From: JAUXIQ01 sp030620925 [NCBI: Nitrospinota bacterium]
GTDB lineage: Bacteria > JAUXIQ01
DNA: 12,177 nt
Direction: 5' to 3'
Assembly: GCA_030620925.1 (NCBI GenBank)
Contig: JAUXIQ010000022.1
Coordinates: 1 to 12,177, forward strand
The stretch's first letter is position 1, and every line of letters begins with the position of its first letter. A program made the translations under genes and the position numbers. Under the pieces are notes generated by a model, which saw only the letters and a list, made by a program, of their open reading frames with translations, was not told the origin of the DNA and did not search any database. Below are positions 6-9,928 of the stretch, piece after piece.

Positions 6-58
6 CAGGCGAGATTCTTCACTCCGTCCCGCTATGCGGGACTACGTTCAGAATGACA
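6..58 (-). repeat. Dispersed hairpin repeat, copy 1 (TGTCATTCTGA family)
   Basis: Read on the minus strand, the element opens with TGTCATTCTGA (58-48), contains a perfect 7-bp hairpin GTCCCGC / GCGGGAC (26-32 with 36-42, loop TAT) and closes with GAAGAATCTCGCCTG (20-6). The same opening, hairpin and 15-base ending recur on the plus strand at 9501-9545, and a decayed copy lies at 9757-9806. It lies downstream of the acyl-CoA dehydrogenase gene and carries no coding signal. Repeats of this style occur between genes in many bacterial genomes; no function is shown here. Confidence 0.8.
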
Positions 59-70
59 CGATGCGGCTCC

Positions 71-135
71 GTAGGGGCGGTCCCGCGCGTGGCGGGATGT
101 AACCCGCCCTTTTGGGGCGTATTGTCATACGCCCC
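71..135 (+). repeat. GTAG-headed palindromic repeat block
   Basis: The block starts with GTAGGGGC (71-78) and then holds two perfect inverted repeats: GGCGGG / CCCGCC (91-96 with 103-108) and GGGGCGTAT / ATACGCCCC (114-122 with 127-135, loop TGTC). The second motif reappears in decayed form at 9316-9335. It sits 36 bp beyond the stop codon of the minus-strand acyl-CoA dehydrogenase, so its RNA could fold at the 3' end of that transcript. On that strand the stem is followed by A residues rather than a U tract, so it is not a canonical intrinsic terminator. Confidence 0.7.
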
Positions 136-6589: not shown

Positions 6590-7758
6590 TGAAGATAGCA
6601 ATGATGGAACAGGCCTTTCCATGGGATTTGAGGAGGAGGGGCCTGAAAGACAGCATACGGCACGACCACCGGGTCCGTGAAGCGGTAAAGAAAAACCTGA
6701 AAGAGCTCGTCGGGCGGGAGGAGATCATCACCTCCGACGGGAAGAAAAAAGTGAAGATACCGCTTCAATACCTGGATCAGTACCGGTTTAAGTACGGTCG
6801 GCCGGGGGAAGGCGTGGGCCAGGGTGAGGGCGAGCCCGGCGACGTCATCGGCAAGGAAGGCCAGGAGCAGTTTTCAGGCGAGGGGCAGGCCGGAGATATG
6901 CCCGGCGAGAACGTCTATGAAGCGGAGTTCACCCTGGAAGAGATCACCAAGATGATGCTGGAAGATCTGGACCTCCCCTGGCTTGAAGAGAAAGACGAAA
7001 AACAGCAGAAGACCTCAAGCTATTCCTACGACGAGGTACGCACCAAGGGCATATTGCCCAACCTGGATAAACGCAGGACCCTCTATCAGAGCTTGAAGCG
7101 CAGCGCGGCGAAAGGGCGCGGAAAAATAGTTAGAATTGTGGATGATGACCTCCGCTACAAAGTATGGAGGGAGAGGGAGCAGTACCAGTCTAGCGCCGCG
7201 GTATACCTGCTCATGGACCGCAGCGGCTCTATGACCACCGACAAAAAGTACATCGCCAAGAGCTTCTTCTTCTGGCTTGTGCGTTTTCTCAACCTCAAAT
7301 ATCAGAATGTGGACCTGGTGTTCATCGCGCATGACACCGAAGCCCAGGTGGTGGAAGAGAAGGATTTCTTCACCATTAGCAACAGCGGGGGCACCAAGTG
7401 TTCTTCGGCTTACGGGTTGGCTCTGGAGCACATAGTCTCCACCCATCCAAGGGATAAGTGGAATAACTACGTCTTCCACTTCTCAGATGGCGATAACTGG
7501 GCCGAAGACAACCAGTACTGCAAGGAGGCCGTGCAAGAGCTGCTCCAGCATACCTCCATGCTGGGCTACGGCGAGATCAAGTATCGGGATGAGGCCACCT
7601 TCTACGGCTGGGGCCGCCCCTTTGATACCTCCTGGAGCACCCTGCACCAGGAGTTTAATAACATAGAACATCCACATTTCATCACGGTGACCATCAAGCA
7701 AAAAGAAGACGTGTACGAGGCGTTAAAGGAGTTCCTGAGCAGGAAGGAAGAACAGTGA
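6589..7758 (+). CDS. yhbH: YhbH/YeaH family protein (DUF444), von Willebrand factor A-like
   Basis: Middle member of the PrkA-YhbH-SpoVR trio, 389 residues; the molecular role is not established in the family. The N-terminal part (1-68) is basic, then comes a glycine- and glutamate-rich linker (about 70-106), then a von Willebrand A-type domain from about 203. Its metal site looks intact: DRSGS (Asp210, Ser212, Ser214), Thr269 in SGGTK and Asp300 in FSDGD. GYGEIKYR and a C-terminal segment typical of the family follow. The GTG start overlaps the prkA stop (TAGTG) and has AGGGAG (6578-6583) 5 nt upstream; an ATG at 6601 is possible but less well placed. The 3' end overlaps spoVR by 4 bp. In enteric bacteria the homologue acts with the kinase in nutrient stress, so a regulator or scaffold role is inferred. 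Confidence 0.94.
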   Translation: MKIAMMEQAFPWDLRRRGLKDSIRHDHRVREAVKKNLKELVGREEIITSDGKKKVKIPLQYLDQYRFKYGRPGEGVGQGEGEPGDVIGKEGQEQFSGEGQAGDMPGENVYEAEFTLEEITKMMLEDLDLPWLEEKDEKQQKTSSYSYDEVRTKGILPNLDKRRTLYQSLKRSAAKGRGKIVRIVDDDLRYKVWREREQYQSSAAVYLLMDRSGSMTTDKKYIAKSFFFWLVRFLNLKYQNVDLVFIAHDTEAQVVEEKDFFTISNSGGTKCSSAYGLALEHIVSTHPRDKWNNYVFHFSDGDNWAEDNQYCKEAVQELLQHTSMLGYGEIKYRDEATFYGWGRPFDTSWSTLHQEFNNIEHPHFITVTIKQKEDVYEALKEFLSRKEEQ

Positions 7759-9185
7759 GCCTGGAGAGGTTCGAAGAGATAAAAAAGGTTGCCGTGGAGC
7801 TGGGGCTGGACTTTTTCGATATCTATTTCGATACCGTTCCTCTGGACATCATGGCCGAGATAGCCGCTTACGGGCTCCCCACCCGACCCCAGCACTGGTC
7901 CTACGGGAAAGTCTACAACCGTTATCGGGTACACGGCCGCATGGGGCTCTCCAAAATCTACGAGATAGTTTTGAATAATGACCCCTGCTACGCCTTCCTT
8001 CTGGATACCAATATTGAGATAGAGAACCTCCTGGTTGCCGCCCACGTTTATGCCCATTGCGATTTTTTCAAGCACAACGTGGTGTTCAAAGATACCGACA
8101 GGAACATGGTCAACGAAGCCGTGCAGCACGCCATCCGGGTGGACGAGTATATAGAAAAATACGGGCTGGAGCGGGTGGAGAAGGTTATGGATATAGCATT
8201 CTCCGTGGATAAACATATAGACTTTCACAAGAAGCTCTACCGCAGGAAGTACCCCCCCCGTCAGGTAGTTGAGAAAGAGGTCAAGACTGACGAGTATGCC
8301 GACCTCTTCGGCGAGGAATCGTTATCGGTGGTGGAGGAGGTGGTCGGGGATAAGCTGCCCCCCCATGCGGAGAAGGACTTACTCTGGTTCATGGCCAACT
8401 ACGCCCCCATAGAGCCCTGGGAAAAAGATATTCTGGATATGGTGCGCGAGGAGAGCTTCTATTTCCTGCCTCAGTTCGAGACTAAAATACTCAACGAGGG
8501 TTGGGCCAGCTACTGGCATGCCGAGATACTGAACAGGTATGCGAGCCTCACTCCGGCGGAGACCATCGACTTCGCTTCGCTGCACGCCTCAGTGGTGCAT
8601 CCGGGAGGCATGGGGTCCATCAACCCTTATTATCTGGGTTATAAACTACTGATAGATATTGAGAAGCGTTGGGATGAGATGTACCGCAATGGAGAGTCGG
8701 CAATTGACGGCCGGACCAAGCTTTTTAAAGTGCGCGAGGAGGAGAACGACTTTTCATTCATCTCCAATTACCTCACTGTGGAACTGGCCGAGGAGCTTCA
8801 ACTGTTTACCTACGGCTACTCCTGCTCACATTCCCAGGGGGGTAAAGGCAAGTGCAGCCGGTGCGGTGAACTGGAGATAAAGAGTCGCGACCTGGACCAG
8901 GTGGTCCAGAGCCTCATCGCCTCTAAATCCAACTACGGAGTTCCCAGGGTGACCATCACCGAGGTTAAGAACGGCGAGCTTTACATGCAGCAGGACCCCA
9001 TGGAGCTCGGCGGTCTGGACAAGAAATATGCGGATAAGACCATCGAATATATCTACAAGCTCTGGAAACAGCCGGTCCATATCAAGACCGTCGACGAGAA
9101 TGGAAACGAGGTGCAGCTCACCTGCTGCGACAACGGCCAGATGGTCTCCAAGAACAACAACGAGCAAAACGAAGGCACCGAATAG
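7755..9185 (+). CDS. spoVR: SpoVR family protein
   Basis: Last gene of the prkA operon. SpoVR is needed for spore cortex formation in Bacillus, but homologues occur widely in non-sporulating bacteria, where they travel with PrkA and YhbH; biochemistry is unknown. Of 476 residues, recognisable family segments are DIYFDTVPLDIMAEIAAYGLPTRPQHW (22-48) and YGKVYNRYR (50-58). Next come the histidine-rich HVYAHCDFFKHN (97-108), MANYAPIEPWEKDIL (213-227), LNEGWASYWH (246-255) and VVHPGGMGSINPYYLGYKL (280-298). KVREEENDFSFISNYLT (325-341) and GELYMQQDP (407-415) follow. An unusual cysteine cluster lies at 357-370 (Cys357, His359, Cys367, Cys370). The GTG start overlaps the yhbH stop in GTGA and follows AGGAAGG (7741-7747). 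No terminator is obvious after the stop. Confidence 0.95.
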   Translation: MSLERFEEIKKVAVELGLDFFDIYFDTVPLDIMAEIAAYGLPTRPQHWSYGKVYNRYRVHGRMGLSKIYEIVLNNDPCYAFLLDTNIEIENLLVAAHVYAHCDFFKHNVVFKDTDRNMVNEAVQHAIRVDEYIEKYGLERVEKVMDIAFSVDKHIDFHKKLYRRKYPPRQVVEKEVKTDEYADLFGEESLSVVEEVVGDKLPPHAEKDLLWFMANYAPIEPWEKDILDMVREESFYFLPQFETKILNEGWASYWHAEILNRYASLTPAETIDFASLHASVVHPGGMGSINPYYLGYKLLIDIEKRWDEMYRNGESAIDGRTKLFKVREEENDFSFISNYLTVELAEELQLFTYGYSCSHSQGGKGKCSRCGELEIKSRDLDQVVQSLIASKSNYGVPRVTITEVKNGELYMQQDPMELGGLDKKYADKTIEYIYKLWKQPVHIKTVDENGNEVQLTCCDNGQMVSKNNNEQNEGTE

Positions 9186-9286
9186 ACAGGTTTTATTGCA
9201 CGCCCTTTAGTAAGAAACTCCCTCAAATAAATCCTCCTTTTATTGTCATTTTGGATGAGGTGAATCTGCGGCACACGGGGTTCGCG

Positions 9287-9356
9287 GTAGGAGCGCCTTC
9301 CAGGCGCGACCGTAAGGGCGTATTACATACGCTCCACGAAGGCGGGATTGATCCCG
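9287..9356 (+). repeat. GTAG-headed repeat, copy with 28-bp exact duplicate
   Basis: GTAGGAGC followed by the palindrome GCGCC-TTCCA-GGCGC forms the start of a 28-base unit (9287-9314) that recurs exactly at 9662-9689. It continues into GCGTAT / ATACGC (9318-9323 with 9327-9332), a decayed version of the hairpin at 114-135, and the perfect palindrome CGGGAT-TG-ATCCCG (9343-9356). The 101 bases between the spoVR stop and this unit are AT-rich with no recognised element. Confidence 0.8.
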
Positions 9357-9400
9357 TGGAACGCGGGACGCCTCTACGAGAAATTGCTGGGGTCGTTGGG

Positions 9401-9492
9401 TGTCGTAGGGGCAACCCCCCCGCGGAAGGCGGGATTGCCCGTCATCGGTATTTATATTATTTGGGCAGGCACAGGGGCCTGCCCCTACGACA
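9401..9492. repeat. 92-bp element bounded by 12-bp perfect inverted repeats
   Basis: TGTCGTAGGGGC (9401-9412) and GCCCCTACGACA (9481-9492) are exact reverse complements and enclose a short element with an internal hairpin GGGCAGGC-ACAGGG-GCCTGCCC (9463-9484) that overlaps the right end. It has no coding capacity and no obvious flanking target duplication. It can be read as a MITE-like remnant, or as two inverted GTAG-headed palindromic units forming a BIME-like pair. Confidence 0.75.
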
Positions 9493-9500
9493 GTGTATCC

Positions 9501-9545
9501 TGTCATTCTGAGTCCCGCGTTTTGCGGGACGAAGAATCTCGCCTG
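9501..9545 (+). repeat. Dispersed hairpin repeat, copy 2 (TGTCATTCTGA family)
   Basis: TGTCATTCTGA (9501-9511) leads into a perfect hairpin GTCCCGC-GTTTT-GCGGGAC (9512-9530) and ends with GAAGAATCTCGCCTG (9531-9545). The beginning, stem and end match copy 1 at 6-58 in the opposite orientation. The preceding bases from 9483 also match those before copy 3 (28 of 29 positions, 9483-9511 versus 9739-9767). Confidence 0.8.
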
Positions 9546-9587
9546 CCCGAGCAAACCCTGTAGAGCTTTATTCTGCCCCCTCCCCTT

Positions 9588-9616
9588 AATCCCCTCCCAC
9601 CTGTGGGAGGGGAGAT
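9588..9616. repeat. Perfect CT-rich / GA-rich hairpin
   Basis: TCCCCTCCCAC (9590-9600) and GTGGGAGGGGA (9603-9613) are exact reverse complements separated by two bases, giving a very stable long stem; AA and TT at the outer ends extend the symmetry around one unpaired G. It lies about 400 bp past the spoVR stop. No T-run follows directly, so a terminator role is possible but not typical. It appears unrelated in sequence to the GTAG-headed units beside it. Confidence 0.7.
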
Positions 9617-9646
9617 TTATTGCTGGCGGAATCGCGGCAAGATGCC

Positions 9647-9715
9647 GCTCCTACATTGGATGTAGGAGCGCCTTCCAGGCGCGACCGTAGGAGCAAGGCT
9701 TGCCCTGCCCAGGGC
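9647..9715. repeat. Inverted pair plus tandem GTAG-headed palindromic units
   Basis: GCTCCTACA (9647-9655) and TGTAGGAGC (9661-9669) form a 9-bp inverted repeat around TTGGA. The right arm begins the second exact copy of the 28-base unit (9662-9689). Its last bases begin another GTAGGAGC (9687-9694), followed by the palindromes GCAAG-G-CTTGC (9693-9703) and GCCCT-GCCC-AGGGC (9702-9715). So three units with the same head sit back to back or in tandem. Confidence 0.75.
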
Positions 9716-9738
9716 GCTGTCCCGCTGCCGCCGGTCGG

Positions 9739-9806
9739 CCCTACGACTGTGTATCCTGTCATTCTGAACGAAGTCCTGCCTTCCGCGGGACGTTCCGCTA
9801 AGAATC
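9739..9806 (+). repeat. Dispersed hairpin repeat, decayed copy 3 (TGTCATTCTGA family)
   Basis: Bases 9739-9767 match 9483-9511 at 28 of 29 positions. The element continues with a stem GTCCTGC / GCGGGAC (9773-9779 with 9785-9791) that has one change from copies 1 and 2, and ends in a degraded AAGAATC (9800-9806). From 9807 to 9928 I see no repeat, gene or strong promoter; TTGTGC and TATGAA, 18 bp apart near 9882-9911, are a weak candidate for the next gene. Confidence 0.65.
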
Positions 9807-9928
9807 GTATTTACGCGGTAGTTAGCGAGAACCTTTTTATGACATGGGTTTCTGTGACGTGGTAGACTTATGGGAATTTTTTTGTGCCAGATGCGAATGA
9901 TCGAATATGAAGCAAAGCGAGGGTAATC

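What the first reader, a model, noticed from the sequence alone, without database searches (positions are those of the whole stretch)
9287..9745. GTAG-headed palindromic units resembling REP/BIME elements
The 8-mer GTAGGRGC recurs seven times in the window: plus strand at 71-78, 9287-9294, 9405-9412, 9662-9669 and 9687-9694; minus strand at 9481-9488 and 9647-9654. It is usually followed by a different short palindrome each time (for example GCGCC-TTCCA-GGCGC, GCAAG-G-CTTGC). Some units are paired head-to-head or tail-to-tail. A GTAG tetranucleotide next to an imperfect hairpin, often in inverted pairs, is the hallmark of REP sequences mobilised by RAYT (TnpA-REP) Y1 transposases, best known in enterobacteria and pseudomonads. 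If this is a non-proteobacterial genome, a constant head with swappable hairpins would be a noteworthy variant.
Basis: partly seen in the sequence, partly recalled or inferred. Interest (0 to 1): 0.6.

Follow-up and report, generated by a model that had tools for sequence, protein, structure and literature searches.

The report
REP/BIME palindromes without an intact transposase
The window carries ordinary bacterial REP palindromes of two kinds, built into mosaics between genes, in a draft genome where only a decayed scrap of the transposase type that normally goes with them could be found.

Summary
In detail: seven GTAGGRGC 8-mers at the stated places, 0.73 expected. They are REP units arranged as BIMEs.

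Two REP classes share the 8-mer. (i) GTAGGGGC-stem-GCCC(CTAC): many stems, often head-to-head dimers; 118 pattern matches genome-wide against 15 for the reversed pattern. (ii) GTAG-GA-stem-GA: two main stems; 39 against 6. Of hairpin-bearing copies in the stretches read, 73 of 83 lie outside ORFs.

No intact RAYT was found in this fragmented draft, but contig C62 holds a relic resembling group-4 RAYTs beside a class (i) dimer. In other genomes such RAYTs carry a class (i) palindrome just after the HUH motif (24 of 27 automatically returned loci). Internal and flanking stems match in 17 of 21 loci (16 of 20 distinct genes), 0.76 expected. The internal REP was already reported (PMC6006769).

So this is a new member of a known kind. 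The leftover oddity is a third palindrome, TCCCGC-N-GCGGGA, often inside or beside the other repeats.

The parts
71..135 (+). Class (i) head-to-head dimer, decayed: GTAGGGGCGG-[TCCCGC..GCGGGA nested]-ACCCGCCC / GGGGCGTAT..ATACGCCCC; the right CTAC is lost
   Evidence: same dimer type elsewhere in the genome
9287..9309 (+). Class (ii) REP GTAG-GA-GCGCC-TTCCA-GGCGC-GA
   Evidence: 39 genome-wide pattern matches, 37 of them variants of two stems
9312..9337 (.). Degenerate double-foot class (i) unit GTAAGGGCGTATTACATACGCTCCAC
   Evidence: Read; intact form GTAGGGGCGTATTGCATACGCCC occurs 12 times exactly in the genome
9405..9488 (.). Class (i) head-to-head heterodimer GTAGGGGCAACC..TTGCCC / GGGCAGGCACAGGGGCCTGCCCCTAC with a CCCGC..GCGGG palindrome inside the left hairpin
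   Evidence: the same two hairpins, without the nested palindrome, lie inside a RAYT gene of genome G131 (L185) and head-to-head on own contig C20
9503..9540 (.). TCATTCTGA..GAAGAATCTC repeat (a separate repeat family) with GTCCCGC..GCGGGAC in its middle
9632..9654 (-). Class (ii) REP GTAGGAGCGGCATCTTGCCGCGA, tail-to-tail partner of 9662-9684
9662..9684 (+). Class (ii) REP GTAGGAGCGCCTTCCAGGCGCGA
9687..9744 (.). Degenerate head-to-head dimer GTAGGAGCAAGG..CCTGCCC / AGGGCG..CGGCCCTAC next to the previous unit
   Evidence: a class (ii) unit abutting a GTAGGGGC head recurs elsewhere
9759..9807 (.). Second copy of the TCATTCTGA repeat, with an imperfect TCCTGC..GCGGGA palindrome inside
   Evidence: (D2)
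7755..9185 (+). spoVR-like gene upstream of the mosaic
   Evidence: PF04293
9929..11893 (+). aldehyde ferredoxin oxidoreductase gene downstream of the mosaic
   Evidence: PF01314, PF02730

Best explanation
The units are REPs grouped into a BIME in the spoVR-AOR intergenic region. Class (i), GTAGGGGC-stem-GCCC(CTAC), is the long or double-foot REP that goes with RAYT group 4 (TnpA-REP subclass 2.4). Class (ii), GTAG-GA-stem-GA, has the layout of GTAG-1 REPs; REPs of that layout are known with group-3 RAYTs. A RAYT recognises the folded single-stranded REP, uses GTAG to choose the cut site and moves the unit; pairing of the stem matters more than its letters, so the stem can drift or be exchanged as long as both arms change together. 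Different stems are best read as the footprints of different RAYT variants, each tied to its own stem. Shown here: anatomy, copy number, location, paired arms, the RAYT-to-stem match in other genomes, a RAYT relic in this genome. From published work on other (group-3) RAYTs: recognition and cleavage rules. Inferred: movement itself, that this genome's units were spread by RAYTs now lost or unassembled, and that a group-3 RAYT once served class (ii).
For: Enrichment with hairpins; 73 of 83 hairpin-bearing sites outside ORFs of 120 aa or more, although 72% of the sampled bases are inside; 31 GTAG..CTAC head-to-head spans and 25 tail-to-tail spans, some of them compound; 22 of 34 distinct inner sequences have complementary outer arms, 5.0 on average when arms are re-paired at random. 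RAYT genes of the P0001 type: exact GTAGGGGC or GCCCCTAC within 200 nt after the HUH motif in 24 of 27 automatically returned loci, 0 of 27 in the 200 nt before. Internal stem equals a flanking stem in 17 of 21 loci (L137 and L122 are one gene, so 16 of 20), permuted mean 0.76, maximum 5. REP-rich genomes hold such a RAYT in 33 of 47 cases, the rest in 50 of 338, odds ratio 13.6, p 1e-14. Relic on own contig C62: 68% over 25 aa (E 0.01) and 78% over 65 nt, E 9e-10 in a database of RAYT loci only, to L141, after a class (i) dimer as in intact genes. 7 of 24 distinct own class (i) hairpins occur letter for letter inside RAYT genes of other genomes. PMC8266576 (sections 17, 20, 29 read): in group-3 RAYTs GTAG and loop are critical for cleavage, stems changed to their complement have a modest to moderate effect, a mismatch in the stem a severe one; the Marinomonas group-3 REP has a 5 bp stem two bases from GTAG, the layout of class (ii).
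Against: No intact RAYT in this assembly: PF01797, NF047646 and a 19-sequence RAYT profile found nothing, and that profile did not report the relic either. 14 of 47 REP-rich genomes have no group-4 hit. The commonest exact own hairpin in the stretches read, GTATTGCATAC, was inside none of the RAYT genes read. No RAYT tied to the class (ii) stems was found, and 1 of 385 other genomes has a near relative of one of those stems. No empty site was shown, because no close relative is held. The co-occurrence test ignores kinship between genomes and used a threshold set after seeing the table. P0001 is below the curated cut-off of NF047646 (62.4 against 80 bits); its assignment to group 4 rests on motifs and the internal REP, not on a tree.
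Confidence: 0.87

Rival explanations
1. The units are kept by the host as RNA or DNA structures (terminators, mRNA 3' stabilisers, gyrase sites) and are no longer or never were mobile.
For: They lie mostly between genes and form hairpins; no intact RAYT was found.
Against: Rfam finds nothing in the window at gathering scores; units of the same kind sit inside and beside transposase genes elsewhere with matching stems; a host function does not by itself explain exact hairpins shared with RAYT genes of other genomes.
Confidence: 0.2
2. The copies are pieces of one longer repeat family (a MITE) with its own transposase, and GTAGGRGC is just part of its consensus.
For: Recurrent neighbours exist: a TCATTCTGA repeat, a GCTGGGGNCGTTGGG linker, a CTGGCTCTT linker, or a class (ii) unit abutting class (i), in 28 of 83 hairpin-bearing sites by loose motifs; a few of the other 55 visibly carry variants of these.
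Against: Most of the other 55 of 83 show no common neighbour (25 contexts printed); units occur singly, as HH and as TT with different spacers.
Confidence: 0.05
3. Stem diversity arises not from different RAYTs but from exchange of hairpin tops, as the TCCCGC..GCGGGA palindromes inside other hairpins suggest.
For: 58 copies of the palindrome in 49 REP-selected stretches; by loose motifs 19 lie within 22 nt of a REP head or its complement, 10 near class (ii)-like arms, 8 in CCCTCCCC hairpins, 5 in TCATTCTGA repeats, 16 elsewhere.
Against: Flanks are only weakly complementary: runs of 6 or more in 14 of 58, shuffled mean 5.8 but maximum 14; the stretches were chosen for REPs, which inflates the association. 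Stems follow the RAYT.
Confidence: 0.12

Closest known systems
TnpA-REP subclass 2.4 / RAYT group 4 REPs (Quentin et al. 2018, PMC6006769; abstract passages, section 13 and find passages read)
   Same: Stem foot of consecutive G-C pairs, long and double-foot REPs, REP inserted in frame in the transposase gene between HUH and Tyr, NH[IFV]H and WQ motifs, wide taxonomic scatter
   Different: In this genome only a relic of the transposase was found; many stems coexist, often as mixed dimers
GTAG-1 REPs (Di Nocera et al. 2013, PMC3733652; abstract, parts 1-3 of 8 of the text and section 16 read) and group-3 RAYT REPs (PMC8266576)
   Same: GTAG, then an unpaired dinucleotide, a short stem, a short unpaired 3' end
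   Different: No cognate RAYT found; two stems, in several places paired tail-to-tail with each other, with a CTGGCTCTT linker in some
Bacterial interspersed mosaic elements (E. coli BIMEs; recalled and as described in PMC3733652)
   Same: REPs in alternating orientation with recurrent linkers between genes
   Different: Two REP classes plus a third palindrome and a TCATTCTGA repeat in one mosaic

Membership tests
GTAG REP superfamily | Terminal GTAG next to a short stem-loop | tested here: met
GTAG REP superfamily | Many dispersed copies, mostly outside genes | tested here: met
   genome-wide counts; 49 stretches
GTAG REP superfamily | HH and TT dimers | tested here: met
GTAG REP superfamily | RAYT gene in the same genome | tested here: inconclusive
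   None intact; relic on C62; draft is 89% complete in 445 contigs; unit clusters are over-represented near left contig ends (12 of 56, p 0.003) but not strikingly for both ends (9 of 34, 6.1 expected)
RAYT group 4 / subclass 2.4 REPs, class (i) | Stem foot of G-C pairs and double-foot GTAG..CTAC units | tested here: met
RAYT group 4 / subclass 2.4 REPs, class (i) | Same REP type inside the RAYT gene after HUH | tested here: met
   In other genomes; own genome only as a relic
RAYT group 4 / subclass 2.4 (the P0001-type proteins) | Motifs NH[IFV]H, WQ and YIxNNP, given for subclass 2.4 | tested here: inconclusive
   P0001 has NHIH, WQ and YIKGNP; invariant NH.HG and WQRNY in the 19 aligned; no tree was built
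RAYT group 4 / subclass 2.4 REPs, class (i) | Cut and joined by the cognate TnpA-REP | not testable with these tools
   Needs protein
GTAG-1 / RAYT group 3 REPs, class (ii) | Unpaired dinucleotide between GTAG and stem and a short 3' motif | tested here: met
   GTAG-GA-stem-GA in 37 of 39 listed sites, allowing variants
GTAG-1 / RAYT group 3 REPs, class (ii) | Group-3 RAYT flanked by the same unit | tested here: inconclusive
   No Y1 transposase found in the incomplete own genome; not searched for elsewhere. Class (ii) is therefore called GTAG-1-like, not filed as a member

The most novel reading that the evidence does not exclude
Each group-4 RAYT gene carries, inside its own coding sequence, the stem that it serves, so gene and substrate change together; stems in a genome like this one record a succession of RAYTs, and hairpin tops (TCCCGC palindromes included) are exchanged as modules between repeats.
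Probability: 0.15. Interest if true: 0.6.

Novelty: new member of a known kind. Interest (0 to 1): 0.36.

Why it matters
It settles a guess made from raw sequence and separates two REP layouts hidden under one 8-mer. The match between the REP inside a RAYT gene and the REPs beside it suggests a cheap way to assign orphan REPs to the RAYT type that spread them, and makes the question 'what fixes the stem sequence?' testable with pairs of RAYTs and swapped stems.

Tried and rejected
Literature: the string GTAGGGGC alone is useless as a search term (440 papers; the 20 listed are unrelated by title). GLKPAPT, a peptide that the insert encodes in some RAYTs, is in no paper of the held library, but the insertion itself is in print, so I dropped the idea that it was unreported. 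One search (hairpin apex insertion) showed 10 of 33 papers, none on the point by title.

Naming the organism: SpoVR against genome contigs gave 41 relatives, the best at 43%, no use for placement; those named loci were not analysed further. All sampled genomes are 'same domain' only. A strict composite-dimer pattern had 0 matches in genome contigs, where the window's own genome may be left out.

Nested palindromes as proven apex insertion: rejected as unproven, because the flank test was weak. Other own-genome hits (C434, C59, two on C94): read and set aside; C434 is 33% with a stop, the C59 and C94 hits cover only the REP-encoded stretch.

Choices that I made: the REP-rich threshold (20 or more and 3 times the control) was set after seeing the table, and I picked the genomes by eye from that table. 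Of the 70 loci L137-L206 used for the insert count, 30 came back automatically (best hit of a genome, ranked by a profile built from five insert-bearing genes) and 40 were picked by hand, some because their match was split near the insert; one search separates them (24 of 27 and 24 of 32; in 3 and 8 further loci no HUH motif was found and they are not counted; before the motif 0 of 27 and 2 of 32). Palindromes read from both ends count as two distinct sequences.

Full report
Observation. The seven GTAGGRGC sites are real and in excess of chance. The region 9186-9928 lies between a spoVR-like gene and an aldehyde ferredoxin oxidoreductase gene, both on the + strand. Reading it gives a mosaic: a class (ii) unit at 9287-9309, a decayed double-foot unit at 9312-9337, a head-to-head heterodimer at 9405-9488, two TCATTCTGA repeats, a tail-to-tail class (ii) pair at 9632-9684 and a degenerate dimer at 9687-9744. 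The site at 71 is the left half of another dimer.

Genome-wide test. The window lies on contig C271 of a 2.5 Mb, 445-contig draft, 89% complete. GTAGGGGCN{5,14}GCCC is found 118 times against 15 for the reversed pattern; GTAGGAGCN{7,13}GCGA 39 against 6, 37 of the 39 being variants of two stems. The bare TGTAGGRGC is only mildly enriched (91 against 66). In 49 stretches, the window included, 87 of 147 GTAGGRGC have stems of 6 bp or more, against 2 of 81 for six look-alike 8-mers. 73 of 83 hairpin-bearing sites lie outside ORFs of 120 aa or more, while 72% of the bases are inside; 5 of the 10 inside are in one stretch, L013. The pattern scans gave 31 head-to-head and 25 tail-to-tail spans; several of these are compound.

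Two classes. In class (i) the stem starts right at GTAG (GGGC..GCCC), often with a second foot CTAC. In class (ii) the dinucleotide GA separates GTAG from a 5 bp stem and GA follows it. Di Nocera et al. describe such a dinucleotide and a 3-base end motif for GTAG-1 and GTAG-2, unlike the other families; the Marinomonas group-3 REP has a 5 bp stem two bases from GTAG.

Stems. In class (i) stems vary but stay paired: among 34 distinct inner sequences 22 have three complementary outer pairs, against a mean of 5.0 when arms are re-paired at random; in RAYT loci 88 of 105 against 6.5.

Transposase. Own genome: no PF01797, NF047646 or RAYT-profile match. A single-protein search with RAYT P0001 gave 25 aa at 68%, E 0.01, on C62. 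The DNA there reads class (i) dimer with a nested palindrome, then a stretch 78% identical over 65 nt to the RAYT in L141 (E 9e-10, in a database of RAYT loci only), then a half REP. Only the middle of the gene is recognisable, so I call it a relic. The draft breaks near such clusters: 12 of 56 clusters among the 100 listed of 118 sites lie within 500 bp of the left contig end, 8.9% expected, p 0.003; for both ends, with known contig lengths, 9 of 34 against 6.1 expected, which is not striking. So absence of a RAYT here is weak evidence.

Other genomes. P0001 and four paralogues of G009 each carry a different GTAGGGGC palindrome after the HUH motif within an open frame; a sixth, L128, carries a GTAGGGGT-type one. 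NCBIfam's REP-associated tyrosine transposase model matches P0001 below its curated cut-off (62.4 against 80 bits) and P0002 above it (126.8). A profile from the five found 83 of 385 other genomes at E 1e-20 or better (the 386 searched include this one). Of 66 genes with a recognisable HUH motif, 53 have the exact 8-mer in the next 100 nt and 1 in the 100 nt before. In the automatically returned loci it is 24 of 27 within 200 nt after and 0 of 27 before; in the hand-picked ones 24 of 32 and 2 of 32. Where a locus has both an internal and a flanking hairpin, the two match within 2 mismatches in 17 of 21 loci (16 of 20 distinct genes), against 0.76 when loci are permuted. Genomes rich in class (i) hold such a RAYT in 33 of 47 cases against 50 of 338; kinship is not corrected for. 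Of the 14 REP-rich genomes without it, five were in the PF01797 search and all five have some Y1 transposase.

Link to the window. The heterodimer at 9405-9488 has the same two hairpins as the element inside a RAYT gene of genome G131 (L185), and both occur head-to-head on own contig C20. 7 of 24 distinct own hairpins occur exactly inside RAYT genes of other genomes. The commonest exact hairpin in the stretches read, GTATTGCATAC, was not found in any RAYT gene read, though its 23-mer occurs in 3 of 58 other sampled genomes (in one of them only with one mismatch). The class (ii) stem GGCATCTTGCC was found with up to 2 mismatches in 1 of 385 other genomes.

Mechanism. From PMC8266576 (sections 17, 20, 29): two group-3 TnpA-REP proteins cut ssDNA REPs at CT, one of them also at CA; GTAG guides the choice of the cut; loops are critical; stems changed to their complement have a modest to moderate effect and mismatches a severe one. 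Group 4 is not tested in the sections read, so the transfer to class (i) is inference, and so is movement.

What is known and what is not. Internal REPs in subclass 2.4 genes and double-foot REPs are in print (PMC6006769). I saw no statement in the passages read that the internal stem matches the flanking stem, but the supplementary figures were not read, so I do not claim it as new. The finding is a new member of a known kind.

Noticed in passing
window 28-40, 81-97, 9419-9433, 9512-9529; 58 copies in 49 own stretches: A third palindrome, TCCCGC-N(3-6)-GCGGGA, sits inside or beside REP hairpins, TCATTCTGA repeats and CCCTCCCC hairpins, in several cases in place of the hairpin top. Flank complementarity test was weak.
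   Followed up: partly
window 9503-9540, 9759-9807 and near 1-60: TCATTCTGAGCGAAGCGAAGAATCTCGCC-type repeat, in 5 of 83 hairpin-bearing sites within 45 nt 5' of a GTAG head by a strict motif.
   Followed up: partly
L141, L186, L191: RAYT genes whose insert has grown into tandem copies (KPAPT, IGQAQ, EEGQA repeats in the protein).
   Followed up: no
L063:2415: A second RAYT of G009 (P0002, DHLH type) ends at a GTAGGGGC dimer: its stop codon is the TAG of GTAG.
   Followed up: partly
G317 contig C9 and others: 75 units within 2 mismatches of the own class (ii) stem, 63 on one strand and 12 on the other; the ten listed all read GTAGGCGCGGCATCTTGCCGCGC, three of them at 114 bp spacing.
   Followed up: no
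G003, G033, G038, G039, G046, G120, G148, G179, G183, G208, G287, G310, G339, G365: 14 of 47 genomes rich in GTAGGGGC hairpins have no group-4 RAYT hit; the first five were also searched with PF01797 and all five have other Y1 transposases.
   Followed up: no
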